DNA from: Ancylobacter mangrovi
GTDB lineage: Bacteria > Pseudomonadota > Alphaproteobacteria > Rhizobiales > Xanthobacteraceae
DNA length: 64,000 bases
Assembly (NCBI RefSeq): GCF_024752355.1
Contig: NZ_JANTHZ010000002.1
Coordinates: 124,001-188,000, forward strand
Reading direction: 5' to 3'
Positions 1-20,791 of this stretch are shown in pieces (the stretch's first letter is position 1; each line of letters begins with the position of its first letter). Below the pieces are notes generated by a model that saw only the letters and a program-made list of their open reading frames with translations, was not told where the DNA came from and did not search any database. A program made the position numbers and the translations under genes.

Positions 1-594
1 CAGGTGCTGCTGCTGAGCCGCACCGCCGAGCCGCTCGGCAAGCGCAACTACTGGCCGATCTTCGAGGCCGCCGCCGCCGCCAACCTGCCCGTCGGCGTGC
101 ACGCCTTCGGCTATGGGGGCGCGCCGGTCACCGGCTCGGGCTGGCCCTCCTACTACATCGAGGAGATGTTCGGCCATTCGCCCTCGTGCCAGGCGCTGCT
201 CGCCAGCATGATCTTCGAGGGCGTGTTCGAGCGCTACCCGAACTTCAAGCTGGTGCTGATCGAGGCCGGCTGCGCGTGGCTGCCCGCCTTCACCTGGCGC
301 CTCGACAAGCACTGGGAGCGGCTGCGCAGCGAGGTGCCCCACGTCAAGCGCCCGCCGTCCGAATACATCCGCCAGCAGGTGTGGATCACCACACAGCCGA
401 TCGAGGAGCCCGAGCCGCGCAGCCATCTGGTCGACGTCATCGACTGGATCGGCTGGGACCGGCTGCTGTTCGCCTCCGACTATCCGCACTGGGATTTCGA
501 CGATCCGGCGGTGGCCTTCCCGATCGATATCCCGCTCGACCTGCGCCAGCAGTTCCTGCTGACCAACGCCAAGGCGCTCTACGGGGTGCAGTGA
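1..594 (+). CDS. ACMSD-type amidohydrolase, 3' part (5' end outside window)
   Basis: This is the last 197 residues of a metal-dependent amidohydrolase of the Amidohydro-rel (ACMSD, 2-amino-3-carboxymuconate semialdehyde decarboxylase-like) family. The reading frame is open from the first base, so the start lies outside the window. Visible family features are the mid-barrel metal histidine in VGVHAFGYGG, the glutamate in LVLIEAGCAW, and the C-terminal ASDYPHWDFDDP motif with the catalytic Asp. It aligns along its whole length with the complete 369-residue protein at 19266-20375, including the LYG(V)Q/FGLQ end, so the missing part is probably about 170 residues. It lies upstream of an ABC transporter and a small Rieske protein on the same strand, the same neighbours its paralogues have. 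The substrate is unknown. Confidence 0.85.
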   Translation, partial: QVLLLSRTAEPLGKRNYWPIFEAAAAANLPVGVHAFGYGGAPVTGSGWPSYYIEEMFGHSPSCQALLASMIFEGVFERYPNFKLVLIEAGCAWLPAFTWRLDKHWERLRSEVPHVKRPPSEYIRQQVWITTQPIEEPEPRSHLVDVIDWIGWDRLLFASDYPHWDFDDPAVAFPIDIPLDLRQQFLLTNAKALYGVQ

Positions 595-622
595 TCCCGC
601 TCTACGGGGGTGCAGTGACCCC
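576..622 (+). repeat. Tandem microduplication of the amidohydrolase 3' end
   Basis: The last 16 coding bases, the stop codon and four following bases (576-598) are repeated almost exactly at 599-622, with one extra G and one T-to-C change. The second copy lies beyond the TGA at 592-594 and is not translated with the gene. It looks like a replication-slippage duplication. Confidence 0.7.
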
Positions 623-663
623 TGGCGCCGAACCGGGGCACGCCGAACGCGGCCCCGCGTGAA

Positions 664-687
664 GCCCGGCGCCTCGCGTCGCCGGGC
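664..687 (+). terminator. GC-rich hairpin between amidohydrolase and ABC genes
   Basis: A perfect 8-bp stem (GCCCGGCG at 664-671, CGCCGGGC at 680-687) closes an 8-base loop. There is no real T-run after it, so it may be an attenuator or an mRNA-stabilising hairpin rather than a full terminator. Confidence 0.4.
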
Positions 688-762
688 CGTTCCGGGGTGT
701 CGGGAAGGAGCCGAAAGAAGCTCGCCCGGCCCCGCCGATCAAGAACAACCAGGAGGAAACCG

Positions 763-2103
763 ATGACGTCCGACGGCAAGGGAATTTCACGACGAACCGC
801 CATGAAGGCCGCCGGCGCGGCGGGCGGCCTGTTCCTGATGGGCAAGGCCCCGGCGCTGGCGCAGGGCACGCAGGAACTCACCTTCCTCACCGGCGAGGAC
901 GGCAAGGACACGCAGGCGGTCTGGGCCAAGATGTTCAAGGAGTTCACCGACAAGAACAAGTCGGTGAGCGCCGTGGTGCCCGAATATCTCAACCCCGACG
1001 AGGCGCTGTCGCGCCTGTCGATCCTGCTCAACACCGGGCAGGCGCCCGATGTCGGCAAGTTCGACGACGTCGAGCTGACCGCCCTCGCCTATAACGGCAT
1101 GCTCGAGCCGGTGACCGACATCGTCGAGGCGATCGGCGTGCCGGAAGGCGCGCGGCTGCGCTACAAGGGCGAGGACTATTTCGTCCCCTCCGACATCGGC
1201 ATCCCGATGATGTTCTATCGGAAGGACTGGTTCGACAAGGCGGGCCTGCAGGCGCCCAAGGGCTGGGACGACTACCTGAAGGCGGCCGAGACCCTGACCG
1301 ACAAGTCGCAGCGGCGGTATGGCGACCTGCTGGTGACCAATCCGAGCTCGGGCTACACTACCAATGTCGCGCTCAACCAGGCGTGGTCCAATGGCGGCCT
1401 GTTCTTCGACTGGATCGACGGCAAGTGGCAGGTCGTGGTCGACCAGCATAAGGACGAGCTGACCCAGACCATCGAGTGGTTCAAGAAGCGCACCGCCTTC
1501 TCGCCGGTCTCCGCCAACTACGCCTATGCGCAGGTGAACCAGGCGTTCGCGGCCGGCAACGTCGCCATGATCGAGTACCCGGGCGCGCGCACGCTGAACT
1601 ACCTGCATTCCGACTTTCCCGATATCGAGAAGGTGACGGGCGTGGCGCCAGTACCGGCCAACAAGAAGCCGGCGGTGAAGCTCTCCAATGGCGGCCTGTG
1701 CATCTTCAAGAAGCAGGGGCGCGATCCCGCCGCCGCCAAGGCGCTGGTGCGCAGTATGGTAGAGAGCCCGCTCTATCTCGAATGGCTGTGGACCGTGCCG
1801 GGCCATCTGGTGCCGACCAACAAGGCGCTGTTCCTCGGCAAGTGGCGCGAGCACGAGTTCTTCAAGGCGCATCCGGACCTGCTGGCGACCATCGATGCGG
1901 CCTATCCGAGCGGCTACAGCGCCGTCACGGGGCCGGTCGCGACCAAGGGCCCGGACCTCAATCCGGCCGCCAGCAGCGTGTTCCGCGCCGGCGTCTATGC
2001 GAGCCTGATCGGCAGCCCGATCCTCGACGGCACGTCGGCCGAGCAGACCCTTGGCGCCATCGCCAAGTCGATGCAGACCGCGATGGACAAGCTGAAGACG
2101 TAA
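763..2103 (+). CDS. ABC transporter extracellular solute-binding protein (family 1)
   Basis: Periplasmic binding protein (446 residues) of a carbohydrate-type ABC importer; it captures the substrate and delivers it to the permeases that follow. The ATG at 763 is chosen because an AGGAGG ribosome site sits at 751-756; an upstream in-frame start at 697 lacks one. The N-terminus carries a twin-arginine signal (SRRTAMKAAGAAGG, ending in an ALAQ cleavage site near residue 35), so export is probably through Tat. The rest is typical of family 1 binding proteins (FYRKDWFDKAGLQAPKGWDD). It starts a five-gene operon: binding protein, two permeases, ATPase, Rieske protein. The substrate cannot be read from sequence; the family suggests a sugar, polyol or acid sugar, while the neighbouring amidohydrolase and Rieske genes suggest an oxidisable or cyclic compound. 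Confidence 0.9.
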   Translation: MTSDGKGISRRTAMKAAGAAGGLFLMGKAPALAQGTQELTFLTGEDGKDTQAVWAKMFKEFTDKNKSVSAVVPEYLNPDEALSRLSILLNTGQAPDVGKFDDVELTALAYNGMLEPVTDIVEAIGVPEGARLRYKGEDYFVPSDIGIPMMFYRKDWFDKAGLQAPKGWDDYLKAAETLTDKSQRRYGDLLVTNPSSGYTTNVALNQAWSNGGLFFDWIDGKWQVVVDQHKDELTQTIEWFKKRTAFSPVSANYAYAQVNQAFAAGNVAMIEYPGARTLNYLHSDFPDIEKVTGVAPVPANKKPAVKLSNGGLCIFKKQGRDPAAAKALVRSMVESPLYLEWLWTVPGHLVPTNKALFLGKWREHEFFKAHPDLLATIDAAYPSGYSAVTGPVATKGPDLNPAASSVFRAGVYASLIGSPILDGTSAEQTLGAIAKSMQTAMDKLKT

Positions 2104-2107
2104 CGGC

Positions 2108-3079
2108 ATGGCTCTTCACAGCGCACGCGAGTCCTACCCCGGACAGAACACTCCCGGCCTGAGAGATCAGGCCGGCGGCCGGGGCAAGGCTCTCCGGAGC
2201 ATCATCGGCACCGCTATCGTCGCGCCGTGGCTCCTTCCGGCCCTGCTGATCATCGGCCTGGTCCAGATCGGGCCGATGCTCTACGCGATCTGGCTCAGCC
2301 TCTACGAGAAGGACGCCTTCTCCTTCACCTGGGACTGGGTCGGGCTCGGCAATTATGAGACCCTGCTGCAGAGCGCCGAGTTCTGGTCGGCGGCGGGCTT
2401 CGGCGTGTGGTTCGCGGTGCTGTCGGTGGTGGTGCAGCTCGCCGTCGGCGTGCCGGTGGCGCTGCTGCTGCACCAGAACCTGCGCGGGCGTGGCCTGGCG
2501 CGCGGCATCGTGCTGCTGCCCTACATGGTGCCGACCGCCGCGATGGCGCTCGTCTTCGCGCTGATGATGAGCGACATCTACGGCGTGTTCGACCACATAC
2601 TGGTCTCGCTCGGCCTCATCGACGAGCCGATACCCTTCCTCGGCTCGCATGCATGGGCGCTGCCGGCGACGCTGGTCGCCTCGACCTGGAAGTGGACGCC
2701 CTTCGTCGTCATCGTGATCCTCGCCCGGCTGCAGACGATCGAGGTCTCGCTCTACGAATGCGCCAAGGTCGAAGGCGCGAACGCGTTCCAGCGCTTTCGC
2801 GACGTCACCCTGCCCTCGCTGCGCAGCACGCTGCTGCTGATCGTGATGCTGCGCTGCATCTGGATGTTCAACAAGTTCGAGGTGCCCTACCTGCTGACCA
2901 AGGGCGGCCCCGGCAGCGAGACCACCAATCTTCCGATCTACGCCTACAAGGTGACCTTCCTGCAGAACCAGCAGGGGCTCGGCGCCGCACTCTGTGTCGT
3001 CATGTTCGCGATGCTGTTCATCTTCGCCAGCATCTACACGAGCATCGTGAAGCCGGAAAAAGAGATCGAGGTGGAGTGA
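2108..3079 (+). CDS. ABC transporter permease, MalF/UgpA type
   Basis: Inner-membrane permease (323 residues) with about six transmembrane helices; it forms half of the translocation channel. The EAA-type coupling loop that contacts the ATPase is visible as ECAKVEGANAFQRFRDVTLPSL near residues 217-238. A hydrophilic N-terminal tail of about 30 residues precedes the first helix. The gene starts four bases after the binding-protein stop and ends one base before the next permease, which indicates one transcript. Sugar-type family 1 systems usually have exactly this pair of unequal permeases. Confidence 0.9.
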   Translation: MALHSARESYPGQNTPGLRDQAGGRGKALRSIIGTAIVAPWLLPALLIIGLVQIGPMLYAIWLSLYEKDAFSFTWDWVGLGNYETLLQSAEFWSAAGFGVWFAVLSVVVQLAVGVPVALLLHQNLRGRGLARGIVLLPYMVPTAAMALVFALMMSDIYGVFDHILVSLGLIDEPIPFLGSHAWALPATLVASTWKWTPFVVIVILARLQTIEVSLYECAKVEGANAFQRFRDVTLPSLRSTLLLIVMLRCIWMFNKFEVPYLLTKGGPGSETTNLPIYAYKVTFLQNQQGLGAALCVVMFAMLFIFASIYTSIVKPEKEIEVE

Positions 3080-3080
3080 G

Positions 3081-3908
3081 ATGGCTACGACACGGTTCCT
3101 GTCGAAGGGATTGAACTATCTCGCCCTCGCCGCGGTGTGCCTCTTCTTCATGTTCCCGATGTACTGGATGCTGAAGGGCTCGCTGGAGACGGCGCCTGAG
3201 CTGCTGAGCGCGCATCTGCTGCCCGGCTCGATCTCGTCGGAAGCCTTCCGCGAGCTCATCGGCCAGGCCTCGTTCCGGCAGTACTTCTTCAACAGCGCCA
3301 CGGTGGCGATCGCCTCCACCATCGTCTCGACGACCTGTGCGGTGCTGGCAGGCTACGGGCTCGCCCGCTTCAAGTTCCCGGGCAAGGCTGCGATGAGCCG
3401 GGGCGTGCTGTTCTGCTACATGTTCCCGTCGCTGGCGCTGTCGATCCCGCTGTTCAACATCTTCTACAGCATCCGGCTCGGCAACACGCTGTTCGGCCTG
3501 ATGCTGACCCATGTCACCCTGTCGCTGCCGTTCGGCATCTGGCTGATGTGGCAGTACTTCCAGACCATTCCCTCGGCCTTCCGCGAGAACGCGGCCCTGC
3601 TGGGGGCCGGGCGGTTCCGCACCTTCCTGGAGGTCGAACTGCCGCTGGCGCGCTCCGGCCTGATCGCGGTCGCGATCTTCGCCTTCGCGCTGTCCTGGGA
3701 AGAATACGAATTCGCCTTCGTGCTGATCACCTCGGAAGCGTCCAAGACGCTGCCGATCGGCATGACGCAGTTCGTCACGCGCGACTACGTGGTGTGGAAC
3801 ATGATCATGGCGGCCGGCATCACCATGGCCGTCCCCGCCTTCCTGCTGATCTCGTTCCTGCAGAAATACCTGGTGGCCGGCTTCACCTCCGGCGGACTGA
3901 AGGGCTGA
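3081..3908 (+). CDS. ABC transporter permease, MalG/UgpE type
   Basis: Second inner-membrane permease (275 residues, about six helices). The N-terminal helix (LNYLALAAVCLFFMFPMYWMLKGS) and the EAA-like loop (ENAALLGAGRFRTFLEVELPLA) are typical of the MalG branch. It starts one base after the upstream permease stop, with a GGTGGAG ribosome site inside that gene. It ends in the usual short SGGLKG tail. It pairs with the 2108-3079 product and is energised by the ATPase at 3978. Confidence 0.9.
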   Translation: MATTRFLSKGLNYLALAAVCLFFMFPMYWMLKGSLETAPELLSAHLLPGSISSEAFRELIGQASFRQYFFNSATVAIASTIVSTTCAVLAGYGLARFKFPGKAAMSRGVLFCYMFPSLALSIPLFNIFYSIRLGNTLFGLMLTHVTLSLPFGIWLMWQYFQTIPSAFRENAALLGAGRFRTFLEVELPLARSGLIAVAIFAFALSWEEYEFAFVLITSEASKTLPIGMTQFVTRDYVVWNMIMAAGITMAVPAFLLISFLQKYLVAGFTSGGLKG

Positions 3909-3977
3909 CGACAGCTCCCATCCGCGCCCATGGCCGGCGCGGCAAGACAACAGAGAAACCGGGAGGCCGGGAGGAAC

Positions 3978-5146
<1,169 letters not shown>

Positions 5147-5150
<4 letters not shown>

Positions 5151-5569
5151 CGGCGATGAAGAAGTATGTTGTCGGGTCCACCAAGGACATTCCCGAGGGC
5201 AGCCGCACGCTCGTTCACGTGAAGGGCCGGCCGATCGCCATCTTCAACATCAAGGGCGAGTATTTCGGCCTGTTCGACCGCTGCCCGCATCTCGGCGGCA
5301 GCCTGTGCCGCGGCGCGCTGACCGGGCTGATCCAGTCCAAGATGCCGGGCGAGTACAGCTTCATCCGCGAGGGCGAGATCGTGCGCTGCCCCTGGCATGG
5401 CTGGGAGTTCGATATCCGCACCGGCAAGTCCTATTGCGACCCGGAGAAGATCCGCGCCCGCAACTTCCCGGTCAGCGTGGAGGACGGCCGCCACCTGATG
5501 GAAGGGCCCTATGTGGCCGAGACGGTGCCGGTGAAGGTCGAGGACGACTACGTCGTCGTCGAGCTATAG
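5147..5569 (+). CDS. Small stand-alone Rieske [2Fe-2S] protein with long cluster loop
   Basis: A 140-residue soluble protein made of a single Rieske domain; there is no non-haem iron catalytic domain and no membrane anchor. The cluster ligands are C46-P-H48 and C81-P-W-H84, separated by 32 residues instead of the usual 16-17, so a loop of about 15 residues (ending GEYSFIREGEIVR) is inserted between the two ligand pairs. The GTG start overlaps the ATPase stop; an ATG nine bases later is possible. Its nearest relative in the window is the protein at 20378-20791, which has the same spacing and also follows ACMSD-type amidohydrolases. The role is unknown: an electron carrier or an accessory subunit for the amidohydrolase are both conceivable. 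Confidence 0.85.
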
Positions 5570-5734: not shown

Positions 5735-6760
5735 TCAGGCGCCCTTGTCGAGCCGCTGCCGGGCGAGCCGCGCGGCGAGCTGAAGCGCGCTGATCATGGC
5801 GGTAGCGTCCGCCGTGCCCTTGCCGGCGATGTCGTAGGCGGTGCCGTGGCCGGGCGTGGTGCGGATGACCGGCAGGCCATAGGCGACCGAGGCGAATTTC
5901 AGCCGCTTCAGCGGGATCGTCCCCTGGTCGTGATAGAGCGAGACCACGCCGTCATAGCGCCCCTCCTCGCCCTGCATGAACGAGACGTCCGCCGGCACGG
6001 GGCCGACAATGTCGTAGCCCCGGCCGACCGCCTCGCGGATGGCGGGCTCGATCTCGTCGATCTCCTCCTTGCCGAGCAGCCCGTTGTCGCCGGCATGCGG
6101 GTTCAGCGCCGAGACCGCGATCCGCGGCTTCTCGATGCCCCAGGCGTTCTTCAGCGCGTCGGAGAAGCGGATGGCGATGTCGAGCACATTCTCCTTCGTC
6201 ACCTTGCCGACCGCCGCCGCCAGCGACATGTGGCTCGTCATCTGCGCCACGCGCAGCTTGCCGCCGACGAGGATCTTGAGCGGCTTCGGGCCCCTGGACA
6301 GGGCCTGGATGAATTCGGTCTGGCCGGGATAGTCGCGCCCGGCGAGCTGCAGGCCCTGCTTGTTGACCGGGCCGGAGACGATGGCGTCGACCTTGCCCTC
6401 GAGCGCGATGCGGACCGCGGTCTCGGTGTCCTCGGCCGCGGCGGTGCCGCCGGCCTTAGAGAGCTTGCCGATCTCCCACTCCGCGTCGTCGATATTGTGG
6501 GTGTCGAGCACCACGACGGCGTTGGAGTTGATGCCGTCGATCTCCGACGCGTCCTTGATGGCGACGACGTCCGGGCGCTTCGCCGGGTCCCAGGTCGAGA
6601 GCGTGCGCTCGACGACGCTCGCGGCGCCGACCAGGATCGGCCGGCACTCGGCGCGCACGCCCGCTTCAATCGCGCCCTTCAGCGCCACTTCAGGGCCGAC
6701 GCCGGCCGGATCGCCGAGCGTGATCGCCACCACGGGCAGCCTGGATGGACTGGCCGGCAT
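5735..6760 (-). CDS. pdxA: PdxA/PdxA2-type 4-phospho-hydroxy-acid dehydrogenase
   Basis: A 341-residue NAD- and metal-dependent dehydrogenase of the PdxA family. The start at 6760 has a GGGAGGAAG ribosome site; the frame stays open upstream but runs antisense to the next gene. Hallmarks are LGDPAGVGPE near the N-terminus, VSGPVNKQGLQ, and the metal-binding histidines in MTSHMSL, LNPHAGDNG and LYHDQGTIPLK. PdxA makes a pyridoxine precursor from 4-phosphohydroxy-threonine. The PdxA2 branch oxidatively decarboxylates D-threonate or D-erythronate 4-phosphate made by DUF1537 kinases. The neighbourhood (a DUF1537 kinase at 9789, the FAD oxidase and gntR of the same operon, no other pdx genes) favours the catabolic PdxA2 role, but sequence alone does not settle it. 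Confidence 0.8.
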   Translation of the reverse strand: MPASPSRLPVVAITLGDPAGVGPEVALKGAIEAGVRAECRPILVGAASVVERTLSTWDPAKRPDVVAIKDASEIDGINSNAVVVLDTHNIDDAEWEIGKLSKAGGTAAAEDTETAVRIALEGKVDAIVSGPVNKQGLQLAGRDYPGQTEFIQALSRGPKPLKILVGGKLRVAQMTSHMSLAAAVGKVTKENVLDIAIRFSDALKNAWGIEKPRIAVSALNPHAGDNGLLGKEEIDEIEPAIREAVGRGYDIVGPVPADVSFMQGEEGRYDGVVSLYHDQGTIPLKRLKFASVAYGLPVIRTTPGHGTAYDIAGKGTADATAMISALQLAARLARQRLDKGA

Positions 6761-6786
6761 GTCTTCCTCCCGCATTCGCAGCCGGT

Positions 6787-8322
6787 TCAGCGAAGGCCCG
6801 ACCACCGCGGCGGTCCGAAGCCGAGCTTGCCCGGATTCATGATGTTGTTGGGGTCCCACGCGTCCTTGAGCGAGGTGATCAGGTGCCAGGCCTCGCCATA
6901 CTGGTCGCGCATGAAGCGCCCGAGCTTGAGGCCGATGCCGTGATGCTCGTTGATGACGCCGCCATATTTGAGCGAGACGGCGATTGCCGCGTCCCACAGC
7001 CGGTCGTGCAGCGCCACCGCCTCGTCCGGATCGTCCGGCGCCTCGTCGACGTAGAAGCGGTCGTAGATCATCCCGCCCCACGGGTACCAGTGCGAGAAAT
7101 GCGCGGTGTAGCGGGCGCCGAGATGAGCGAAGCCTTCCTCGATAGCGCGCTTCTTGGCGAGATAGAGCTCCGGCAGCTTGTCGAAGGTCGTCACGCTGTC
7201 GGTGGTGCCGAAGATCTGCGGCGGCGCCGGGGCGTGGCCGGAAGCGAAGGGCTGGTATTTGTTCTCCCACCAGACCGAGGCCAGCTCGGGGCCCAGATCC
7301 TCGCCGCCGGCCGCGGTGCAGATCGCGGCCACCGCGTCGACCTCGACCTCGACGACGGGCGCGTTGCCCTCGCAGCAGATGACCATCACCGAGCCGGAGA
7401 TGTCGCGGCCGATGACCTTGCCGAGCTTGCCCGCATCGGCGGGATCGTAGAGACGAATGACCGCGGGCTTCCACCGCTTGGTCATGATCTGGCGCGCAGC
7501 CTCGATGCCGGCAACGGCGGTGTCGAAGCGGAAGGTCACGAAGTCGCGGCGCTCGGGCAGGCGCTCGAGCTGGAACTTGAGCTCGGTGATCGCGCCGAGC
7601 GTGCCCTCGGAGCCGACCAGCACCTGCAGCAGGTCCGGCCCGGCGGCATGGTTGCGCACCGGCAGGGTCTCGACGATGCGGCCCGGCGGCATCACGGCCT
7701 TCACCTGCAGCACGAGGTCTTCCGCCTTGCCGTACTTGGTCGAGACCACGCCCGAGCCGCGCGCCGCCACATAGCCGCCCGCGGTGGCGCCGTGATGCAT
7801 CGAGCCGGGATAGTGCGGCAGGGTGAGGCCGCGCTCGTTGAGCTTCTGCTCCAGCTCCCAGCCATTCATGCCGGCCTCGACGGACAGGATCAGGCTCTGC
7901 TCGTCGATGTCGAGGATGCGGTTCATGCGGCTGAGGTCGAGCGCGATGCCGCCATAGGGCGCCAGCGTGCCGCCCTGCGTGCCCGAGCCGCCGCCGCGCA
8001 CGATCACCGGCACCCGGAAATGATCGGCGATGCGCACGACCTCGGCGACCTCGGCCGTCGACGCCGGCGAGACGGCGAGGTCGGCGCTGGGCAGGGGAAG
8101 GTCGCGGTACTTCAGATATTGCGAGAACCAGGACCAGTCGGCCGCCTGCGCCTGCAGAACCTTCGGGTCATCGCTGACATGCGCCGGCCCGACGGCGCGC
8201 TCCAGCTCGTGGGCGACCATCGAGCGGATATAGGCGGCACCGCCGCTGGCGGCCGCCGCCCCGGCGGACGGGCCGGCCGTGGCGGGCCTGTCCAGCACCT
8301 GGGCTGCGCTTTGGGTTCGCAT
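6787..8322 (-). CDS. FAD-linked oxidase, GlcD/AGPS type
   Basis: A 511-residue flavoprotein of the PCMH/VAO family. The FAD-binding segment shows VIVRGGGSGTQGG and the PGSMHHGATAGGYVAARGSG loop; the C-terminal FAD-oxidase domain ends with the conserved INEHHGIGLKLG. Relatives include glycolate oxidase GlcD, D-lactate dehydrogenase and alkylglycerone-phosphate synthase; they oxidise 2-hydroxy acids or use FAD in related chemistry. No signal peptide is visible. It lies between gntR (3 bases upstream) and the pdxA-like gene (26 bases downstream) in one minus-strand operon, so a 2-hydroxy acid such as a tetronate is a reasonable but unproven substrate. Confidence 0.85.
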   Translation of the reverse strand: MRTQSAAQVLDRPATAGPSAGAAAASGGAAYIRSMVAHELERAVGPAHVSDDPKVLQAQAADWSWFSQYLKYRDLPLPSADLAVSPASTAEVAEVVRIADHFRVPVIVRGGGSGTQGGTLAPYGGIALDLSRMNRILDIDEQSLILSVEAGMNGWELEQKLNERGLTLPHYPGSMHHGATAGGYVAARGSGVVSTKYGKAEDLVLQVKAVMPPGRIVETLPVRNHAAGPDLLQVLVGSEGTLGAITELKFQLERLPERRDFVTFRFDTAVAGIEAARQIMTKRWKPAVIRLYDPADAGKLGKVIGRDISGSVMVICCEGNAPVVEVEVDAVAAICTAAGGEDLGPELASVWWENKYQPFASGHAPAPPQIFGTTDSVTTFDKLPELYLAKKRAIEEGFAHLGARYTAHFSHWYPWGGMIYDRFYVDEAPDDPDEAVALHDRLWDAAIAVSLKYGGVINEHHGIGLKLGRFMRDQYGEAWHLITSLKDAWDPNNIMNPGKLGFGPPRWSGLR

Positions 8323-8325
8323 CGT

Positions 8326-9045
8326 TCACCTGGCCCTTCTACCTGTCGGTCCGCCCGACGTGCCGCGCGGCAGGAAGGCTGCGGCGCGCATCAGCAGGTC
8401 GGTCAGACTCAGCCGCATATGTGCGATGTGCTCCTTGACCATCGACACGACGCTCTCGACGTCGCCGTCGCGCATGGCCCGGGCGATCCGCTCGTGCTCG
8501 GCGGAGCATTCCTGAAGCCGCTCCGGCCGCACCGAGGTCGCCCAGAAGCGATGGATCCGGCGGCGCGTCTTCACCGCCAGCGAGGTGATGAGCTCGTTGT
8601 CCGCGCCGGCCTCGATCAGCTTGTGGAACTCGCGGTCGGCGAGGCCCCAGCGCTCGATGTCCTGCGCCTGCGCCGCCGCCTTCATCTCGGCCGTGTAGCC
8701 GATCAGCGCGTCGAACGTCTCCGGCGGGCAGTGCTGGATCGCGCGGGTGACGATGTAGCAGTCCAGCACTTCGAGCAGGTCGCAGATCTCGTTCACGTCG
8801 CGCGGCGTCAGCCCGCGCACGACGTAGGAGCTGCCGCTCGGCTGCTCCAGCAGGCCCTCGAGCTCCAATTGGCGGAGCGCGGCGCGCACCGGCGTGCGGC
8901 TGACGCCCATCTCCTTGGCCAGCTTGTTCTCGGAAAGCGCCGTTCCCGGCGGGATTTCCAGAGCAATCAGGGATTGGGTCAGCCGCTCGTAGACGAGGTC
9001 GCTGCGGCGGGTTGCCTCCGAGGCACTGAACGCTTCTTCGCTCAT
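8326..9045 (-). CDS. GntR-family regulator, FCD (FadR-like) subfamily
   Basis: A 239-residue transcription factor. Residues of about 10-75 form the winged helix-turn-helix (ENKLAKEMGVSRTPVRAALRQLELEGLL); the remaining helical part is an FCD ligand-binding domain of the type that binds small organic acids. The ATG at 9045 has a strong AAGGAG site. It is the first gene of the gntR-FAD oxidase-pdxA operon, and a perfect CTGTATACAG palindrome sits 22-31 bases upstream of its start, suggesting autorepression relieved by a pathway intermediate. Confidence 0.9.
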   Translation of the reverse strand: MSEEAFSASEATRRSDLVYERLTQSLIALEIPPGTALSENKLAKEMGVSRTPVRAALRQLELEGLLEQPSGSSYVVRGLTPRDVNEICDLLEVLDCYIVTRAIQHCPPETFDALIGYTAEMKAAAQAQDIERWGLADREFHKLIEAGADNELITSLAVKTRRRIHRFWATSVRPERLQECSAEHERIARAMRDGDVESVVSMVKEHIAHMRLSLTDLLMRAAAFLPRGTSGGPTGRRAR

Positions 9046-9066
9046 CGTCGCTCCTTGGATGCCAAC

Positions 9067-9076: not shown

Positions 9077-9126
9077 ACCTGTGCGGCACCGTCAATCGAT
9101 GATCCCGATCCGCGCCCAGAAAATGG

Positions 9127-9155: not shown

Positions 9156-9156
9156 C

Positions 9157-11045: not shown

Positions 11046-11057
11046 GGTCGTCTCCCG

Positions 11058-12041: not shown

Positions 12042-12389
12042 TGTCGTCGACCCCGCCGCACGGCCTCCGTCCACGCTCGCGGGGAATAGCGTCGAGCACG
12101 CGCCGGCGCGTGCTTTCCCACCATCCTGCTGTATGAACTCTGTGAGACTTTTGACATTTTCTGTGAAAATATGATTACACTTTGGCCGATTGTGTTACAA
12201 GAGGGATATCGTCGTCGAAGGAAGTGAAGCCGCGTTTCGGGACAGGACTGCATCCTCGGTGCTGCAGAACCCTCCCCCTTCCGGGCTCCGACTTCGGTGA
12301 CGCGATCTCCGTCAAAACGATTCCCGGCAAAGAGCCGAAGGCCTCCGGGACAATCCGCGTCATCATAATACCTGGGGAGGATGTGAGTG
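12042..12389. promoter_or_regulatory. Divergent control region between denD and the second ABC operon
   Basis: This 348-base gap holds no gene. Its centre (about 12130-12200) is the only AT-rich patch. It contains a TTGACA box at 12151-12156 with a possible ATTACA -10 at 12174-12179 (17-base spacer), the inverted repeat ATTTTC-TGT-GAAAAT at 12156-12170, and CTGTGA repeated at 12140 and 12161 (21 bases apart). A GGGGAGG ribosome site at 12374-12380 serves the binding-protein gene. Confidence 0.55.
12159..12179 (+). promoter_or_regulatory. 21-bp operator candidate, copy 1 (denD / ABC transporter)
   Basis: The site reads TTCTGTGA, then AAA, then TATG, A, TTACA. It matches the inverted site at 22366-22386 at 17 of 21 positions. 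It overlaps the putative -10 region of the plus-strand promoter. The DeoR protein at 23344 is the first candidate for the binding protein. Confidence 0.55.
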
Positions 12390-13736
12390 ATGCCTAGTTC
12401 GATATGGGCCCGTGTGCCCACTCGCGCGGCGACAATAACCCTGTACACGCTGTTCTGCAGTCTGCCGGCGATGGCCCAGCAGCAGGTGGTGCGCTTCCTG
12501 CACAACGAGACCGATCCGCCGAGCATCGAATTCTACAACAAGGCGATCGCCGAGTTCGAAAAGGAAAATCCGGGCATCGAGATCCAGATGGAGGCCGTGG
12601 GAACCGACGCGCGCCTGCAGAAGGTGATGGCGACGATCTCGGCCAAGACCATGCCGGAAGTGTTCAAGATCCTTCCGGAGGAAGTGCCCGAATTCGCCAA
12701 GCGCGGCTACATCATGAAGCTGGACGATTTCGTCGACCAGATCGGGCGCGACGACTTCGTCGCCGGCTCGATCGCCACGGTCGACGGCGCGGCCTACAGC
12801 GTGCCCTACACGATGGGCAATTTCAGCGTCCTGTTCTACCGTAAGGATCTGCTCGACGCGAAGGGCATCGCCGTCCCGAAGAACTGGGACGAGTTGAAGG
12901 CGGCGGCCAAGGCGCTCACCGGCAACGGGGTCTACGGCTTCGTCTTCCCCGCGGGCAAGAACCGCATGACCAGCATCTTCTTCAGCTCGCTGATGTGGTC
13001 CGCCGGCGGCACCTATTTCGACAAGGACCTGAACGTCACCTTCAACAACCCGGGCACCATCAAGGCGCTCCAGTTCATGAAGGACATGAAGGCCTACGCC
13101 CCGCCCGGCATCGCGTCGTACTCCTATAACGACATGATCAACTCCTACATGACCGGCACCGTGGCGCTCGACATCTACGCCTCGCGGCTGCCGGCCAACG
13201 CGGCGGCGAACACGCCGGACCTGTTCGCCAAGACCGAGGCGGCGCCGATGCCGATCGGGCCCGCCGGCCTCGCCGTGCATTACGTCAGCCCGGACAGCTT
13301 CGCGCTGACCACGCCGGCCGCCGGCTCCAAGAGCCCTGAGGCCGCGCAGAAGTTCCTGAAGTTCATCATCACCGGCGAACGGCTGAAGGACTTCTCGATG
13401 ACCGCTTTCCCCCATCTCATCCCGCCGCTGAAGAGCGTGCAGGCCGAGCTGATCAAGGACGGCTCGGTGCAGCTCGACAACCGCACCGAGTTCGCCGAGC
13501 AGGCGTTCAACACCACCAACGCGCTCGACTTCGACATCGAGGCCGGGGCGACGTTCAAGGACGGCAAGGTGACGCTGTCGGGCGTGCGCAACCCCTATAT
13601 CGGGCCGATCATCGCGCGCGACATTCCCGCCGTGGTGGTCCAGCGCGTGGTGCTGCAGGGCGAGGACCCCGCCGCGGCCGCGGCCTGGGGCGCCAAGCAG
13701 ATGCAGCAGATCGTGGACGATCTGAAGAGCAACTGA
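12390..13736 (+). CDS. ABC transporter extracellular solute-binding protein (family 1)
   Basis: Periplasmic binding protein (448 residues) of a second carbohydrate-type importer. A Sec signal peptide is visible (positive WARVPTR, hydrophobic TLYTLFCSLP, cleavage after AMA near residue 25). The mature part has the family 1 pattern, including VLFYRKDLLDAKGIAVPKNWDEL. The ATG at 12390 lies nine bases after GGGGAGG; an overlapping GTG at 12387 is less likely. It is divergent from denD and shares its control region, and the next three plus-strand genes supply the ATPase and permeases. A four-carbon acid sugar is therefore a reasonable guess for the substrate; the protein itself does not show this. 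Confidence 0.9.
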   Translation: MPSSIWARVPTRAATITLYTLFCSLPAMAQQQVVRFLHNETDPPSIEFYNKAIAEFEKENPGIEIQMEAVGTDARLQKVMATISAKTMPEVFKILPEEVPEFAKRGYIMKLDDFVDQIGRDDFVAGSIATVDGAAYSVPYTMGNFSVLFYRKDLLDAKGIAVPKNWDELKAAAKALTGNGVYGFVFPAGKNRMTSIFFSSLMWSAGGTYFDKDLNVTFNNPGTIKALQFMKDMKAYAPPGIASYSYNDMINSYMTGTVALDIYASRLPANAAANTPDLFAKTEAAPMPIGPAGLAVHYVSPDSFALTTPAAGSKSPEAAQKFLKFIITGERLKDFSMTAFPHLIPPLKSVQAELIKDGSVQLDNRTEFAEQAFNTTNALDFDIEAGATFKDGKVTLSGVRNPYIGPIIARDIPAVVVQRVVLQGEDPAAAAAWGAKQMQQIVDDLKSN

Positions 13737-13774
13737 CCTCGATGCCGGCATCCGGGGCACCGCCCCGGCGCCCC

Positions 13775-13801
13775 GGGACCGTCCGCCAACCGGGCGGTCC
13801 C
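13775..13801 (+). terminator. Hairpin after the binding-protein gene
   Basis: An 11-bp stem (GGGACCGTCCG with CGGGCGGTCCC, one G-T pair) closes a CCAAC loop 39 bases after the stop codon. No T-run follows. Such hairpins often protect or partly terminate transcripts so that the binding protein is made in excess over the membrane parts. Confidence 0.6.
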
Positions 13802-13868
13802 GTTCGGGCCTCGGTCGGGATGCGAGCCGTCCCGCCCCTCTCGGAAGATCTCTGGAGGTACGACGCTC

Positions 13869-14913
<1,045 letters not shown>

Positions 14914-14921
<8 letters not shown>

Positions 14922-15810
14922 ACCCAACACCGACCTGCCGGGCGACCGGCTGCTCGCCTATCTCGCCCTGTCCCCCAGCATCGCCATCCTGATCCTGCTC
15001 GTCGCCGTGCCGATGGTCACGGTGTTCGCCATGAGCATGCAGCACATCAGCCTCGGCGAACTGAGCGGCCCCTTCGTCGGCCTGCGCAATTTCGAGCGCG
15101 TGCTGGCCGACCCCGCCTTCCTCAACGCGCTGGGCAACACCTTCGTCTGGGTGTTCGGCAGCGTCGCCATCGAGATGGCGCTCGGCCTCGGCATCGCGCT
15201 GCTGCTGAACATCGACTTCAGGATGCGCGGCATCGCCCGCGCGGTGATCCTGACGCCCTACCTGATCCCCACCGTCGTCGCCGTGCTGACCTGGCACTAC
15301 ATGTTCAACGACATCATCGGTGTGCTGAACTACCTGCTGATGGCCGTCGGGCTCATCAGCCAGCCGCTGCTGTGGCTCAACAGCACCTCGATGGCGATGT
15401 TCTCGGTGATCCTGGTCGGGGTCTGGAAGTTCTTCCCCTTCGTCGTCATCGCGCTGATGGGGATCCTGCAGGCGATCCCGCAGGAGCAGTACGAGGCCGC
15501 CGACATCGACGGGGCGAGCGCGCTGCAGAAGTTCTGGCGCATCACCCTGCCGCACATCATGCCGGTGTTCCTGCTGACCGCGCTGCTGCGGACGATCTGG
15601 ACCTTCCACAAGTTCGACATCATCTACCTGATGACGGGCGGCGGGCCGATCGACGCCACCACCACGCTGCCGGTCCTCGTCTACCAGCAGGGCTTCGTCG
15701 ACTTTGCGCTCGGGCGCGCGGCGGCGACGGCGATCATCACCTTCGCCATCCTCGGCGTGCTGCTCGCCGTCTATCTCCACCTGATGAAGCGCGCGGAGGC
15801 CCGCCAATGA
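14914..15810 (+). CDS. ABC transporter permease, MalF/UgpA type
   Basis: Inner-membrane permease (298 residues, about six helices). The first helix is IAILILLVAVPMVTVFAMSM; the coupling loop is EQYEAADIDGASALQKFWRITLPHI near residues 190-214. It overlaps the ATPase gene at its start and the second permease gene at its end (ATGA), so all four genes form one transcript. It pairs with the 15807 product. Confidence 0.9.
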
Positions 15811-16715
15811 GCACGACGGAGCTCTCCCTCGCCGGCTCCCAGCCGGGCGGCCTCGGCCGCTACAACCGGCAGGCGGCGGACCTGCACTATGTCACCTCGC
15901 GCGTGATGGTCTATCTGCTGGCCTTCACCGCGGTCAGCGTGATCGGCTTCCCGCTGTTCTGGATGGTGATCTGCTCGTTCAAGACCTCGACCGAGCTCTA
16001 CCAGTTCCCGCCCGCCTTCCTGCCGCACGACTGGACGCTGACGAACTACCGGGACCTGTTCATCCAGACCAACTTCCCGATCTACTTCGTCAACAGCCTC
16101 GTCGTTGCCGGCGGGGCGACGCTGCTCTCGCTGGTCGTCGGCGGGCTCGGCGCCTACAGCCTCAGCCGGTTCAAGTTCGCCGGCATGCGCACAGTCTCGA
16201 TGCTGACGCTGCTGTGCTACATGCTGCCGGAAGTGCTGCTGGTGATCCCGCTCTACCTGTTCGTGGTGGATCTCGGCATGGCGGACACGCTGATCTCGCT
16301 GATCATCGCCAACACCGCCTTCACCCTGCCGCTGACCATGTGGTTCATGCGCTCCTACTTCAACGCCATCCCGGCGAGCCTGGAGGAGAGCGCGATGATC
16401 GACGGCTGCTCGCGCTTCCAGGCGATGCGGAAGGTCACGCTGCCGCTCGCCCTGCCGGGCCTCGTCTCGGTCGGCGTGTTCAGCTTCAACCACGCCTGGA
16501 ACGAGTTCCTGTTCGCGCTCGTCTTCACCTCGTCGGAAACCAAGAAGGTGCTGTCGCTCGGCCTCGCGACCTGGATCGGGCAGGACAACATCTATTCCTG
16601 GGGCATGCTGCTCGCCGGGGCGGTGCTCGTCACCATCCCGGTCGTGCTGTTCTATCTGCTGGTGCAGCGCCGGCTGGTGGTCGGCCTGTCGGAGGGCGGC
16701 GTGAAGGGCGAATGA
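15807..16715 (+). CDS. ABC transporter permease, MalG/UgpE type
   Basis: Second permease (302 residues) of the 12390 importer. About 35 hydrophilic residues precede the first helix (MVYLLAFTAVSVIGFPLFWMV). The EAA-like loop is EESAMIDGCSRFQAMRKVTLPLA, and the protein ends SEGGVKGE like other MalG-type permeases. The ATG at 15807 overlaps the upstream stop; the frame remains open far upstream but antisense composition shows that part is not coding. It is the last gene before a bidirectional hairpin. Confidence 0.9.
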   Translation: MSTTELSLAGSQPGGLGRYNRQAADLHYVTSRVMVYLLAFTAVSVIGFPLFWMVICSFKTSTELYQFPPAFLPHDWTLTNYRDLFIQTNFPIYFVNSLVVAGGATLLSLVVGGLGAYSLSRFKFAGMRTVSMLTLLCYMLPEVLLVIPLYLFVVDLGMADTLISLIIANTAFTLPLTMWFMRSYFNAIPASLEESAMIDGCSRFQAMRKVTLPLALPGLVSVGVFSFNHAWNEFLFALVFTSSETKKVLSLGLATWIGQDNIYSWGMLLAGAVLVTIPVVLFYLLVQRRLVVGLSEGGVKGE

Positions 16716-18082: not shown

Positions 18083-18147
18083 AGCCGATCAATAATCCTC
18101 GGCCGTCCGGCAGTCCTGACGCTGCTGACACGGGCGCGGTAACAAGA

Positions 18148-19269
18148 ATGCCGGATGCCGCTCGCGGTCCATCCGCGGAGGAGCGCAAGGGCTACAAGTC
18201 GATGGACGCTGGCATACATTCGATCGACTGCGACATTCACCCCTCGATTCCCGGCACCAAGGCACTAATGCCCTATCTGGAGGAGCATTGGCGCGATCAT
18301 CTCTCGTTCCGCGGGATCGATGACGTCGAACTGACTTACAACGCCTACCGCAATCCGTTTTCCTGCCGGCCCGACTGGCGCCCGCCCTCCGGCAAGCCGG
18401 GCGGCGACCCGTCACAGGTGCTGGAACAGGCGCTCGACGCGTTCGGCGCCTCGATCGGCATCCTCAACCCGCTGTGGGGCGGTCCGGTGGTTTATGCGGA
18501 CGACATGGCGTTCGCGCTCTGCCACGCGGCCAATGACTGGATCGCCGCGACCTGGCTCGATCGCGACCCGCGCCTGCGCGCCTCGATGCTGGTGCCGTTC
18601 GAGAGCCCGGAGCTGGCGGCCGAGGAGATCGAGCACCGGGCGCGGGACCCGCGCTTCGTGCAGGTGCTGCTGCTGGCGATGACCGAGGCGCCGCTCGGGC
18701 GCCGGCACTACTGGCCGATCTATCGCGCGGCGGCGCGTGCCGGCCTGCCGATCGCGATCCATGCCGGGACCGGGTACCGCAATCCGCCGACCGGCATCGG
18801 CTGGCCCTCCACCTATGTCGAGGACTACGCCGCGCAGACCGGCGGCTTCCAGACCCAGGTGCTGAGCCTGATGACCGAGGGGGTGCTGACCAAGTTCCCC
18901 GAGCTGAAGGTGGTGCTGGTGGAATCAGGCGTCGCCTGGCTGACCAGCTTCCTCTGGCGCCTGAACAAGACGTGGCGCGGCGTCCGCATCGAGGTGCCGT
19001 GGATCAAGGAGGCGCCGGCCGAGATCCTGCGGCGCAGCCTGCGCATGACGATCCAGCCGCTGAACGCGCCGAAGGGCGAGGAGCAGGTGCGGCGCATGCT
19101 CGACCATATCGGCGGCGACCACATGCTGCTGTTCTCCACCGACTATCCGCACTGGCATTTCGACGGCGGCGACGCGATGCCCCCCGGCCTGCCCGCCGCG
19201 CTGCACCGGAAGATCCGGCTCGACAATCCGCTCGAGACATATAGCCGGCTAACGGAGACGCTGCAATGA
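18148..19269 (+). CDS. ACMSD-type amidohydrolase
   Basis: A 373-residue metal-dependent hydrolase/decarboxylase of the Amidohydro-rel family. The first metal motif is DCDIHPSIP (D-x-D-x-H instead of H-x-H); other conserved parts are IAIHAGTGYRNP, VLVESGVAWL and the C-terminal STDYPHWHFDGGD. The start could be the ATG at 18148 or the one at 18202 (MDAGIHSIDCDIH), which has GGAGG at a rather long distance. The gene overlaps the next amidohydrolase by four bases (ATGA), so the two related proteins are made together and may form a hetero-oligomer. The substrate is unknown. Confidence 0.85.
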   Translation: MPDAARGPSAEERKGYKSMDAGIHSIDCDIHPSIPGTKALMPYLEEHWRDHLSFRGIDDVELTYNAYRNPFSCRPDWRPPSGKPGGDPSQVLEQALDAFGASIGILNPLWGGPVVYADDMAFALCHAANDWIAATWLDRDPRLRASMLVPFESPELAAEEIEHRARDPRFVQVLLLAMTEAPLGRRHYWPIYRAAARAGLPIAIHAGTGYRNPPTGIGWPSTYVEDYAAQTGGFQTQVLSLMTEGVLTKFPELKVVLVESGVAWLTSFLWRLNKTWRGVRIEVPWIKEAPAEILRRSLRMTIQPLNAPKGEEQVRRMLDHIGGDHMLLFSTDYPHWHFDGGDAMPPGLPAALHRKIRLDNPLETYSRLTETLQ

Positions 19270-20375
19270 GCGATACCGCCAAACGTGAGGTCGCCGTCGC
19301 TTCCGCGCAGAAGCTCGGATTGTTCGATGCCGATATCCATCCGGTGCCGAAGAGCGGCACCGAGATCCGAAGCTATCTCGCGCCCGACTGGCACGGGCAT
19401 TTCGACCATTACCGCGAGTTCCAGCGCAAGCCGTTCGCGAACGCCAATTCCTATCCGCGCGCGGTCCGGGCGCTGTCGCGGCGCGATTCGTGGCCGCCCG
19501 GCGGAGGCCTGCCGGGCTCGGACCTCGAGTTCATGCGCGAGCAGCATCTCGATCCCTACAACATCGAGTGCGGCGTGTTGCAGGTGCTCGATCCGGTCGG
19601 CAACAAGCTGCGCCATCCCGGCTTCGCCGCCGCCATGTGCTCGGCGATCAACGACTGGCAGGCGCTGGCCTGGGCCGAGCCGGAGCCCCGGCTGAAGGGC
19701 TCCATCATCGTGCCGCAGGAGGACACCCGCGCCGCGATCCGAGAGATCGAGCGGCTCGGCAGGTCTCCCCTGTTCCGGCAGATCATGATCAGCCCCCGCA
19801 GCGAGGAGCCGCTCGGGCGCCCGCGCTACTGGCCGATCTACGAGGCCGCCGAGGCGCTCGGCATCAGCGTCACGCTGCATGTCGGCGGCGAGAACGGCTT
19901 TCCGGTCACGCCGGCGGGCCACCCCTCCTTCTTCTTCGAGCAGCGGGAATCGCACGTCCCGGCGGCCGAGGCCGTGCTCACCAGCCTGATCCTCGAAGGG
20001 GTGATCGAGCGCTTCCCGCGGCTGCGGGTGATCACGGTCGAGGCCGGCGGCATCGGCTGGGTGCCGGCGCTCTCCTGGCGGCTCGACCATTGCTGGGAGC
20101 GCATGGGCGGCGAGATACCTCAGGTCCGCAAGCCGCCCTCCAGCTATCTGCGCAGCAATTTCTGGTTCTCCAGCCAGCCGATCGACGAGCCGGAAAAGCC
20201 TGAGCATCTGCGCGAGGTGTTCGATTGGGTGGGCTGGGACCGCATCCTGTTCGCCACCGACTACCCGCACTGGGATTTCGACGACCCGAAATATGCGGTG
20301 AAGTTCGCCATGACCCCGGCCGAGCAGCAGATGTTCTTCCGCGACAATGCGCGCACCGCGTTCGGGCTGCAGTGA
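19266..20375 (+). CDS. ACMSD-type amidohydrolase (paralogue)
   Basis: A 369-residue relative of the preceding protein. Metal-site motifs are FDADIHPVPK near the N-terminus, VTLHVGGENG, VITVEAGGIGW, and ATDYPHWDFDDP at the C-terminus. It is closer to the truncated protein at 1-594 than to its direct neighbour, sharing RYWPIYEAA, the QPIDEPE segment and the end of the protein, which suggests that the two loci carry copies of one module. The stop overlaps or nearly touches the Rieske gene start, so all three genes are one operon. Family members are decarboxylases or hydrolases of cyclic or aromatic acids; the exact reaction is not known. Confidence 0.85.
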   Translation: MSDTAKREVAVASAQKLGLFDADIHPVPKSGTEIRSYLAPDWHGHFDHYREFQRKPFANANSYPRAVRALSRRDSWPPGGGLPGSDLEFMREQHLDPYNIECGVLQVLDPVGNKLRHPGFAAAMCSAINDWQALAWAEPEPRLKGSIIVPQEDTRAAIREIERLGRSPLFRQIMISPRSEEPLGRPRYWPIYEAAEALGISVTLHVGGENGFPVTPAGHPSFFFEQRESHVPAAEAVLTSLILEGVIERFPRLRVITVEAGGIGWVPALSWRLDHCWERMGGEIPQVRKPPSSYLRSNFWFSSQPIDEPEKPEHLREVFDWVGWDRILFATDYPHWDFDDPKYAVKFAMTPAEQQMFFRDNARTAFGLQ

Positions 20376-20377
20376 CG

Positions 20378-20791
20378 ATGGCGCGTTTCGTGGTGGCGAA
20401 GGTCGGCGAGATTCCGCGCGGCGAGCAGAAGGTGGTCCGGGTGAAGGGCCGCGAGATCCTGCTGCTGAACGTCGACGACGAGTACGCCGCTCTGCTCAAC
20501 CGCTGCCCGCACGAGGGGGCGAAGCTTTTGTGCGGCGCTCGGGTGGGGCTGCTCGAATCCGACGAGCCCGGCCGCTTCTCCTATACCCGCCAGGGCGAGT
20601 TCCTGCGCTGCCCGTGGCACGGCTGGGAGTTCGAGATCAGGACCGGTCAGTCCTGGTGCGATCCCAAGGACACCCGGATCAAGAACTACGACGTGAAGAT
20701 CGAGCCGGGGGAGAGCCTGGCGAAGGGCCCCTATGTGGCCGAGAGCTTCCCGGTCCATGTCGAGGACAGCTACATCGTCATCTATCTCTGA
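20378..20791 (+). CDS. Small stand-alone Rieske [2Fe-2S] protein with long cluster loop
   Basis: A 137-residue single-domain Rieske protein. Ligands are C43-P-H45 and C78-P-W-H81, again 32 residues apart, exactly as in the paralogue at 5147. After the second pair both have GWEF-[DE]-IRTG-[KQ]-S-[YW]-CDP, and both end in KGPYVAE/EGPYVAE plus a short strand. There is no catalytic iron domain. The ATG at 20378 is used; a GTG at 20372 overlapping the amidohydrolase stop is the alternative and would mirror the GTGA overlap at 5147. It faces, tail to tail, a ferredoxin reductase gene that could supply electrons. Confidence 0.85.
   Translation: MARFVVAKVGEIPRGEQKVVRVKGREILLLNVDDEYAALLNRCPHEGAKLLCGARVGLLESDEPGRFSYTRQGEFLRCPWHGWEFEIRTGQSWCDPKDTRIKNYDVKIEPGESLAKGPYVAESFPVHVEDSYIVIYL

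What the first reader, a model, noticed from the sequence alone, without database searches (positions are those of the whole stretch)
1..20791. Repeated amidohydrolase-Rieske module with a CxH-x32-CxxH cluster motif
Two loci (1-5569 and 18148-20791) pair ACMSD-type amidohydrolases with a stand-alone Rieske protein of about 140 residues. Seen directly: both Rieske proteins have 32 residues between the two ligand pairs, against 16 in the ordinary Rieske ferredoxin at 21883 in the same window; both lack a catalytic iron domain; gene overlaps show co-translation. Known: ACMSD-family enzymes are non-redox decarboxylases or hydrolases, so an obligate iron-sulfur partner is unexpected. Inference: the pair is an enzyme-electron-carrier or regulatory complex for a compound brought in by the linked ABC transporter.
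Basis: partly seen in the sequence, partly recalled or inferred. Interest (0 to 1): 0.75.

Follow-up and report, generated by a model that had tools for sequence, protein, structure and literature searches.

The report
Twin amidohydrolase-fold oxygenases with Rieske partners
Two neighbouring gene sets that look like hydrolases plus an iron-sulfur protein are most likely oxygen-using enzymes of a recently described family, so the pairing is real but not new; a possible second iron-sulfur protein in the electron chain is the fresh lead.

Summary
Both loci hold two PF04909 proteins plus a ~138-residue Rieske protein with CPH-x32-CPWH; locus 1's first amidohydrolase lies just upstream of the window. 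They are not ACMSD-like. One subunit of each pair matches AibH1 best and the other AibH2 best (phmmer E 2e-75 to 2e-94). All six AibH2 metal ligands are kept, and the window's AibH2-like subunits alone keep second-shell Asp342. My tests: 34 of 34 long-loop Rieske loci (x32-x38) from relatives and a class sample have an ARO-like neighbour on the same strand within 1.5 kb, against 0 of 29 short-ferredoxin loci; exceptions exist elsewhere (18 of 80). Fresh lead: the short Rieske ferredoxin and reductase beside module 2 resemble those of related ARO operons, and I found no Rieske oxygenase for them to serve. The long-loop Rieske may be the oxygenase's own cluster subunit, giving two Rieske proteins in series. 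Substrate unknown; tetronate catabolism genes lie between and beside the modules.

The parts
1..594 (+). 3' part of B1, AibH2-like (catalytic) subunit of module 1; the gene starts upstream at contig C15:123482; the partner A1 (AibH1-like) is C15:122421-123485, outside the window
   Evidence: (all six ligands, DYPHWD)
697..2103 (+). ABC solute-binding protein (PF01547) of module 1; start may be 802
2108..3079 (+). ABC permease, first of two
   Evidence: homologues sit in Roseomonas, Microvirga and Mesorhizobium ARO loci
3081..3908 (+). ABC permease, second of two
3978..5150 (+). ABC ATPase, UgpC subfamily-like (411.6 bits, cut-off 432)
5147..5569 (+). R1, long-loop Rieske protein, CPH-x32-CPWHGW, AibG counterpart of module 1
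12387..16715 (+). second sugar-type ABC transporter (binding protein 12387-13736, ATPase 13869-14921, permeases 14914-15810 and 15807-16715), between the modules; its link to them is inferred from position
18202..19269 (+). A2, AibH1-like subunit of module 2 (ORF open from 18148); Asp342 position is His
19266..20375 (+). B2, AibH2-like catalytic subunit of module 2; ligands D23 H25 H205 E259 D332 H335, second-shell D337
20378..20791 (+). R2, long-loop Rieske protein of module 2 (GTG start 20372 possible)
20818..21861 (-). NADH reductase with plant-type 2Fe-2S, FAD and NAD domains (BenC/AntC-like architecture), likely electron source
21883..22218 (-). short (x16) Rieske ferredoxin, inferred shuttle to the ARO modules

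Best explanation
Each module is an ARO: a heteromer of an AibH1-like structural subunit (A) and an AibH2-like catalytic subunit (B) whose six ligands hold a dinuclear metal site (Mn/Fe or Fe2) that uses O2 to hydroxylate a C-H bond of a small polar substrate. The long-loop Rieske protein (R) passes electrons to B. Shown here: homology, subunit assignment, ligand conservation, recurring linkage. From literature on AibH1H2GF: redox role, heterotetramer, Mn/Fe cofactor. Inferred: electrons come from NADH via the BenC-like reductase (20818-21861) and the short Rieske ferredoxin (21883-22218), then R, then B, at least for module 2; the ABC transporter of locus 1 imports the substrate. Substrate unknown; because genes for D-erythronate and L-threonate catabolism lie between and beside the modules, a small hydroxy acid or sugar-like compound (for example a deoxytetronate hydroxylated at its methyl group, as AibH1H2 does to Aib) is a guess, at most 1 in 10.
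For: A1 and A2 hit AibH1 best (E 8e-81 and 2e-75, against AibH2 2e-58 and 2e-63); B2 and B1 hit AibH2 best (1.5e-80 and 1.6e-94, against AibH1 1e-41 and 6e-56). Ligands D,H,H,E,D,H in all four proteins; Asp342 position D in B1/B2, Q/H in A1/A2; over the window and 128 loci scanned, A-type rows have Q 70, H 6, R 1 and B-type rows D 79, unread 1, with 39 rows too close to call (D 34, N 1, Q 1, unread 3). D342A lowers AibH1H2 activity (PMC10401708, passage). Foldseek of the B2 model: top 8 hits all AibH1H2 chains, best TM 0.87. Long-loop Rieske with ARO neighbour 34 of 34, short ferredoxins 0 of 29. AibH1, AibH2, AibG and AibF were all needed for product (PMC7782822). Short ferredoxin: sister (100/99) to the one in a Sulfitobacter gene run B-R-ferredoxin-reductase, whose B (60%), R (59%) and ferredoxin (58%) are the nearest to module 2 among loci held. 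The genome's other PF00355 proteins are two GbcA-like oxygenases, each with a PF00175 reductase within 2 kb, and the bc1 subunit.
Against: No activity, metal or complex data. 73 of 87 x32-x34 ARO loci scanned have neither the short ferredoxin nor a recognised reductase within 8.5 kb (some held stretches are shorter), so a dedicated two-Rieske chain is not general. The window's reductase is BenC-like, not the FMN-type AibF, and runs convergent to module 2. The Sulfitobacter relative has no A gene annotated; an IS5-like transposase lies directly upstream of B. Only PF00355 and PF00175 proteins were sought in the genome, so other redox partners could be missed. Tetronate genes do not recur beside relatives (99 loci: DenD 1, LtnD 1, OtnK/OtnC/PdxA2 0), so they say little about substrate.
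Confidence: 0.88

Rival explanations
1. The long-loop Rieske protein is a plain soluble ferredoxin taking electrons straight from a reductase (as AibG is described), and the short ferredoxin next to module 2 serves something else or is a redundant donor.
For: In five scanned x32-x34 loci a PDR/VanB-type reductase is present without a second ferredoxin (one of the five, L018, is annotated as a hybrid-cluster oxidoreductase); AibF-AibG-AibH1H2 works as three components (PMC7782822). Sequence search of R against PDB gives Rieske ferredoxins first (E 7.8e-13; Rieske oxygenases from 2e-5). In 17 genomes with a stand-alone R, 36 of 49 strong AibH2-like genes have no R found beside them, as a shared soluble carrier would allow.
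Against: R has an aromatic residue two after the last ligand in 124 of 128 rows, as the genome's two GbcA-like oxygenases have Trp, while short ferredoxins have G/A/V in 28 of 28 rows. The short ferredoxin lies in the same gene run as R in Sulfitobacter and in ARO loci of Mesorhizobium.
Confidence: 0.4
2. The amidohydrolases are ordinary metal-dependent hydrolases or decarboxylases of the ACMSD kind and the Rieske protein is a bystander or regulator.
For: Same Pfam family PF04909; distant matches of B2 to ACMSD and to resorcylate and carboxyvanillate decarboxylases (E 3e-9 to 2e-14).
Against: AibH2 matches B2 better by 66 orders of magnitude or more; all six dinuclear ligands kept; Rieske linkage 34 of 34.
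Confidence: 0.04
3. Two modules hydroxylate paired substrates of the tetronate island (for example 4-deoxy-erythronate and 4-deoxy-threonate) to feed DenD/OtnK/OtnC and LtnD.
For: OtnC, OtnK, DenD and LtnD all pass NCBIfam curated cut-offs and lie between or next to the modules; AibH1H2 hydroxylates a methyl group next to a substituted acid carbon (PMC7782822).
Against: The linkage is not seen in relatives; two sugar-type ABC transporters here, and neighbours in relatives (DhaK/DhaL, trehalase-like, IlvD/Edd), point to varied carbohydrate-like substrates.
Confidence: 0.08

Closest known systems
AibH1H2-AibG-AibF, 2-aminoisobutyrate monooxygenase of Rhodococcus wratislaviensis (PMC7782822, PMC10401708; PDB 6m1w, 8fun)
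   Same: two PF04909 subunits with separate H1-like and H2-like sequences, same metal ligands and Asp342 pattern, small Rieske protein encoded alongside
   Different: reductase here is BenC-like with plant-type 2Fe-2S and FAD; an extra x16 Rieske ferredoxin; sugar-type ABC transporter and tetronate genes instead of amino acid genes; two modules in about 22 kb
SfbO and three other candidate AROs (PMC10811679; PDB 8sm6-8sm9)
   Same: PF04909 dinuclear oxygenase found through an adjacent Rieske gene
   Different: as the parts I read describe them, each PF04909 protein was expressed and purified on its own; here A-B pairs
PtmU3 (PDB 6omp)
   Same: amidohydrolase-fold dinuclear hydroxylase (as cited in PMC10401708 and PMC7782822)
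   Different: distant (E 7.6e-18 to B2; 9.6e-21 to B1); biosynthetic
Three-component Rieske oxygenases (reductase, Rieske ferredoxin, oxygenase with its own Rieske domain; scheme recalled)
   Same: proposed order of carriers; R shares the aromatic residue after the last ligand with the genome's two GbcA-like oxygenases
   Different: no fused catalytic domain; catalytic site sits on a separate TIM-barrel protein

Membership tests
ARO (AibH2-like amidohydrolase-related dinuclear oxygenase) | PF04909 fold with AibH2 as closest solved relative | tested here: met
   B1, B2: (A1, A2 closest to AibH1)
ARO (AibH2-like amidohydrolase-related dinuclear oxygenase) | six metal ligands D25 H27 H211 E265 D337 H340 (AibH2 numbering) | tested here: met
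   B2 D23 H25 H205 E259 D332 H335; same letters in B1, A1, A2; AibH2 list from PMC7782822
ARO (AibH2-like amidohydrolase-related dinuclear oxygenase) | second-shell Asp342 in the catalytic subunit | tested here: met
   D in B1, B2; H/Q in A2, A1
ARO (AibH2-like amidohydrolase-related dinuclear oxygenase) | small Rieske protein encoded nearby | tested here: met
   R1, R2
ARO (AibH2-like amidohydrolase-related dinuclear oxygenase) | dinuclear Mn/Fe or Fe2 cofactor and O2-dependent C-H oxidation | not testable with these tools
   needs protein
AibH1H2 heteromer | one AibH1-like and one AibH2-like subunit assembling as heterotetramer | tested here: inconclusive
   sequence pairing met in both modules; assembly not testable here
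AibF-type reductase | FMN reductase in the operon (PDR/VanB-type in my reading) | tested here: not met
   window reductase is Fer2-FAD-NAD, AntC/BenC/MmoC-like, all under cut-off
ACMSD/resorcylate decarboxylase | mononuclear site with His rather than Glu at the AibH2 E265 position (motif recalled) | tested here: not met
   E in all four proteins; distant E-values for B2
Rieske oxygenase alpha subunit | Rieske domain fused to a catalytic mononuclear-iron domain | tested here: not met
   R1, R2 are 137-140 aa with a Rieske domain only
dioxygenase-type Rieske ferredoxin | x16 spacing with small residue two after the last ligand (pattern taken from the control rows) | tested here: not met
   R1, R2 x32 and Trp; 28 of 28 control rows x16 with G/A/V

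The most novel reading that the evidence does not exclude
AROs may mirror Rieske oxygenases with the parts separated: the long-loop Rieske protein, whose 16-residue insert is predicted as a beta-hairpin between the two ligand pairs, would be the oxygenase's own cluster subunit acting in trans, reached either directly by a PDR/VanB-type reductase or through a second, short Rieske ferredoxin. That would be two Rieske proteins in series in front of a dinuclear Mn/Fe site, with the reductase type deciding whether the second ferredoxin is present.
Probability: 0.35. Interest if true: 0.6.

Novelty: new member of a known kind. Interest (0 to 1): 0.4.

Why it matters
The family is recent and, in the papers I read, few substrates are known. 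A genome whose strong ARO genes all lie in two modules, beside sugar-acid catabolic genes and transporters, is a small system for finding a new substrate class by genetics. The two-Rieske chain, if right, would explain why long-loop Rieske proteins differ from ordinary ferredoxins and tell biochemists which proteins to add to obtain native turnover in place of ascorbate.

Tried and rejected
Tetronate-gene linkage as a substrate clue: scanned 99 long-loop loci; OtnK, OtnC, PdxA2 0, DenD 1, LtnD 1, the last two at loci without A/B, so it is local to this window. Some of those loci are short contigs.

Long-loop Rieske as an exclusive ARO marker: 18 of the 80 best genome-contig loci (80 kept of at least 590 that encode a relative) have no A/B within the held DNA; 12 of the 18 are titled Acetobacteraceae, Asaia or Rhodopila (the last two placed in that family by recall), and some lie at contig ends. 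17 of the 18 genomes hold AibH2-like genes at E below 1e-150 elsewhere, one (G363) holds none at 1e-30. Those 18 genomes have 31 long-loop Rieske matches, of which 13 lie directly beside one of the 49 strong AibH2-like genes; the other 36 AibH2-like genes have none found beside them, some possibly for lack of contig.

x21 Rieske proteins (663-709 aa frames) matched the profile in 5 places and have no ARO neighbour (0 of 5). They were left out of the first fetch, then fetched, and are not in the 34 of 34.

Control: 30 short-ferredoxin loci, one of which (L152) is the window itself and was dropped, giving 0 of 29 within 1.5 kb. The x16 spacing was read in 24 of these 29; in the rest the frame was scored as a fused reductase frame or the motif was not found. 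One flank was cut by a contig end (L160). Of 8 refetched at up to 10 kb each side, one has a weak PF04909-like hit (82 bits, DFPHSI instead of the ARO motif) about 4 kb away.

Reductase-type dichotomy: of 87 loci, PDR without short ferredoxin 5, FNR or BenC type with short ferredoxin 5, FNR without 1, short ferredoxin with no recognised reductase 3, neither 73. Several of these loci supplied the profiles, the window is one of the 87, and one PDR hit (L018) is annotated as a hybrid-cluster oxidoreductase, so this is suggestive only. ARO-linked short ferredoxins cluster on a tree but are not one clade (4 changes against a shuffled mean of 7.5, 0 of 500 as low).

Literature: searches for HpoBCDF and for picolinic acid with amidohydrolase and Rieske found no papers in the library, a recalled lead left untested. 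For the ARO family I searched amidohydrolase with Rieske and oxygenase words, AibH1H2, AibH2/PtmU3, SfbO, and PF04909 with PF00355, and saw two of three parts of PMC10811679, two of six parts of PMC7782822, passages and section 7 of PMC10401708 and passages of PMC12141560. I do not claim that a two-Rieske ARO chain is absent from print.


Full report
What is there. Locus 1 begins upstream of the window: A1 (C15:122421-123485) overlaps B1 (C15:123482-124594, window 1-594), followed by an ABC binding protein, two permeases, an ATPase, and R1, which overlaps the ATPase gene. Locus 2 is A2 (18202-19269), B2 (19266-20375), R2 (20378-20791), all on the + strand, then on the other strand a reductase (20818-21861) and a short Rieske ferredoxin (21883-22218). 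R1 and R2 have 32 residues between the ligand pairs, the short ferredoxin 16. The modules are diverged copies: A 54%, B 44%, R 51% identical.

What it is. Against solved structures, A1 and A2 hit AibH1 first (8e-81, 2e-75) and B1 and B2 hit AibH2 first (1.6e-94, 1.5e-80); for B2, ACMSD stands at about 3e-9. The six ligands reported for AibH2 (PMC7782822, read) are present in all four proteins. The position of Asp342, whose change to Ala lowers AibH1H2 activity (PMC10401708, passage), is Asp in B1 and B2, Gln in A1, His in A2. Across the window and 128 loci, including those the profiles were built from, A-type rows (score lead over 100 bits) have Q 70, H 6, R 1 and B-type rows D 79 with 1 unread; 39 rows, many of them single-subunit AROs, fell under the lead (D 34, N 1, Q 1, unread 3). 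The B2 model (pLDDT 81.7) is closest to AibH1H2 chains. These are members of the family named 'amidohydrolase-related dinuclear oxygenases' (PMC10811679, parts 1 and 2 of 3 read).

Is the linkage general? The R profile at E 1e-15 gave 39 places outside this genome in 60 relatives and 288 other genomes of the class (in the class search at most 14 candidates per genome were scored). All 39 were fetched. The 34 with loops of 32-38 all have an A/B-type gene on the same strand within 1.5 kb; the 5 with a loop of 21 have none. Of 30 short-ferredoxin loci, one is the window; none of the other 29 has one within 1.5 kb (Fisher p 1.3e-18, not corrected for relatedness; x16 read in 24 of the 29). In the x36-x38 group the nearest B match is weak (92-167 bits; L136 also has one of 262), so these are a more distant branch; where the trimmed alignment covers the columns the ligands are kept, except L125, which aligned badly, and two fragments (L136, L144). 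Among the 80 best genome-contig loci, 62 have A or B and 18 do not. 17 of those 18 genomes hold strong AibH2-like genes elsewhere, 49 in all and up to 6 per genome at E below 1e-150, several with a second PF04909 gene alongside. Only 13 of the 49 have a long-loop Rieske gene beside them, so there Rieske genes are fewer than enzymes and one may serve several. The published figure from the AibH2 side is 90% co-occurrence (PMC10401708).

Patchiness. None of 29 same-genus genomes has an x32 match at E 1e-15; two have x36/x37 ones. The modules are accessory. This genome has four strong ARO genes, all in the two modules, and two weak matches on C19 (E 9e-25 and 6e-11).

Electron chain. The genome has six PF00355 proteins: R1, R2, the short ferredoxin, two GbcA-like oxygenases (543 and 454 bits, cut-off 670) and the bc1 Rieske subunit. 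Each GbcA-like gene has a PF00175 reductase within 2 kb. The short ferredoxin and reductase in the window therefore have no Rieske oxygenase partner that I could find, and the ARO modules are the candidates. The ferredoxin's nearest relative is in a Sulfitobacter plasmid run B-R-ferredoxin-FAD reductase (tree support 100/99); no A gene is annotated there, and an IS5-like transposase lies upstream of B. Three Mesorhizobium ARO loci also carry such a ferredoxin and an FAD reductase. Loci with a PDR/VanB-type reductase lack it (5 of 5, one of the five doubtful), but 73 of 87 loci have neither within 8.5 kb. R differs from ferredoxins at the residue two after the last ligand (aromatic in 124 of 128 rows; G/A/V in 28 of 28 ferredoxin rows), where the genome's two GbcA-like oxygenases have Trp. 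The R2 model (pLDDT 83.5, lower at the hairpin tip) puts the insert in a two-stranded hairpin, residues 54-77, between ligands C43/H45 and C78/H81. By sequence R is still nearer to ferredoxins, and by fold both kinds appear. I take the series chain as the most novel open reading, not as shown.

Substrate. Between and beside the modules lie genes that pass NCBIfam cut-offs for 3-oxo-tetronate 4-phosphate decarboxylase, 3-oxo-tetronate kinase, D-erythronate dehydrogenase, L-threonate dehydrogenase and PdxA, and, under cut-off, a YgbI-like regulator and an enolase-superfamily dehydratase. Relatives have other neighbours: DhaK/DhaL, a trehalase-like gene, IlvD/Edd, sugar-type ABC transporters, and the tetronate set does not recur. 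The substrate stays unknown.

Verdict. A real feature, correctly seen, belonging to a family already described; new member of a known kind with an added redox-chain lead.

Noticed in passing
window 5735-12041 (-), 22420-24165 (+), 30375-31184 (+): Tetronate catabolism set: PdxA, OtnC, OtnK, DenD, LtnD (each over a curated cut-off), YgbI-like regulator and OtnI-like isomerase (both under cut-off).
   Followed up: partly
L007:8634-9923 (-), contig C15 about 120.6-121.9 kb: A second kinase of the same two-domain kind as OtnK (D-threonate kinase-like, under cut-off) upstream of module 1.
   Followed up: no
genomes of L022, L026, L030, L032, L035 and others of the 18 searched: Several strong AibH2-like genes per genome (up to 6), several with a second PF04909 gene alongside, but fewer long-loop Rieske genes, at least one of them standing alone.
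   Followed up: partly
L182, L183, L184, L185, L186: x21 Rieske segments in 663-709-codon open frames, with CPHQG and Trp after the last ligand but no ARO neighbour.
   Followed up: no
window 48765-55351 (-): Gene run resembling hydantoinase/acetone carboxylase subunits by eye only (recalled, no tool run).
   Followed up: no
window 25428-26234 (-): A further PF04909 protein, closest to the 4-sulfomuconolactone hydrolase model but far under its cut-off, not part of the modules.
   Followed up: no
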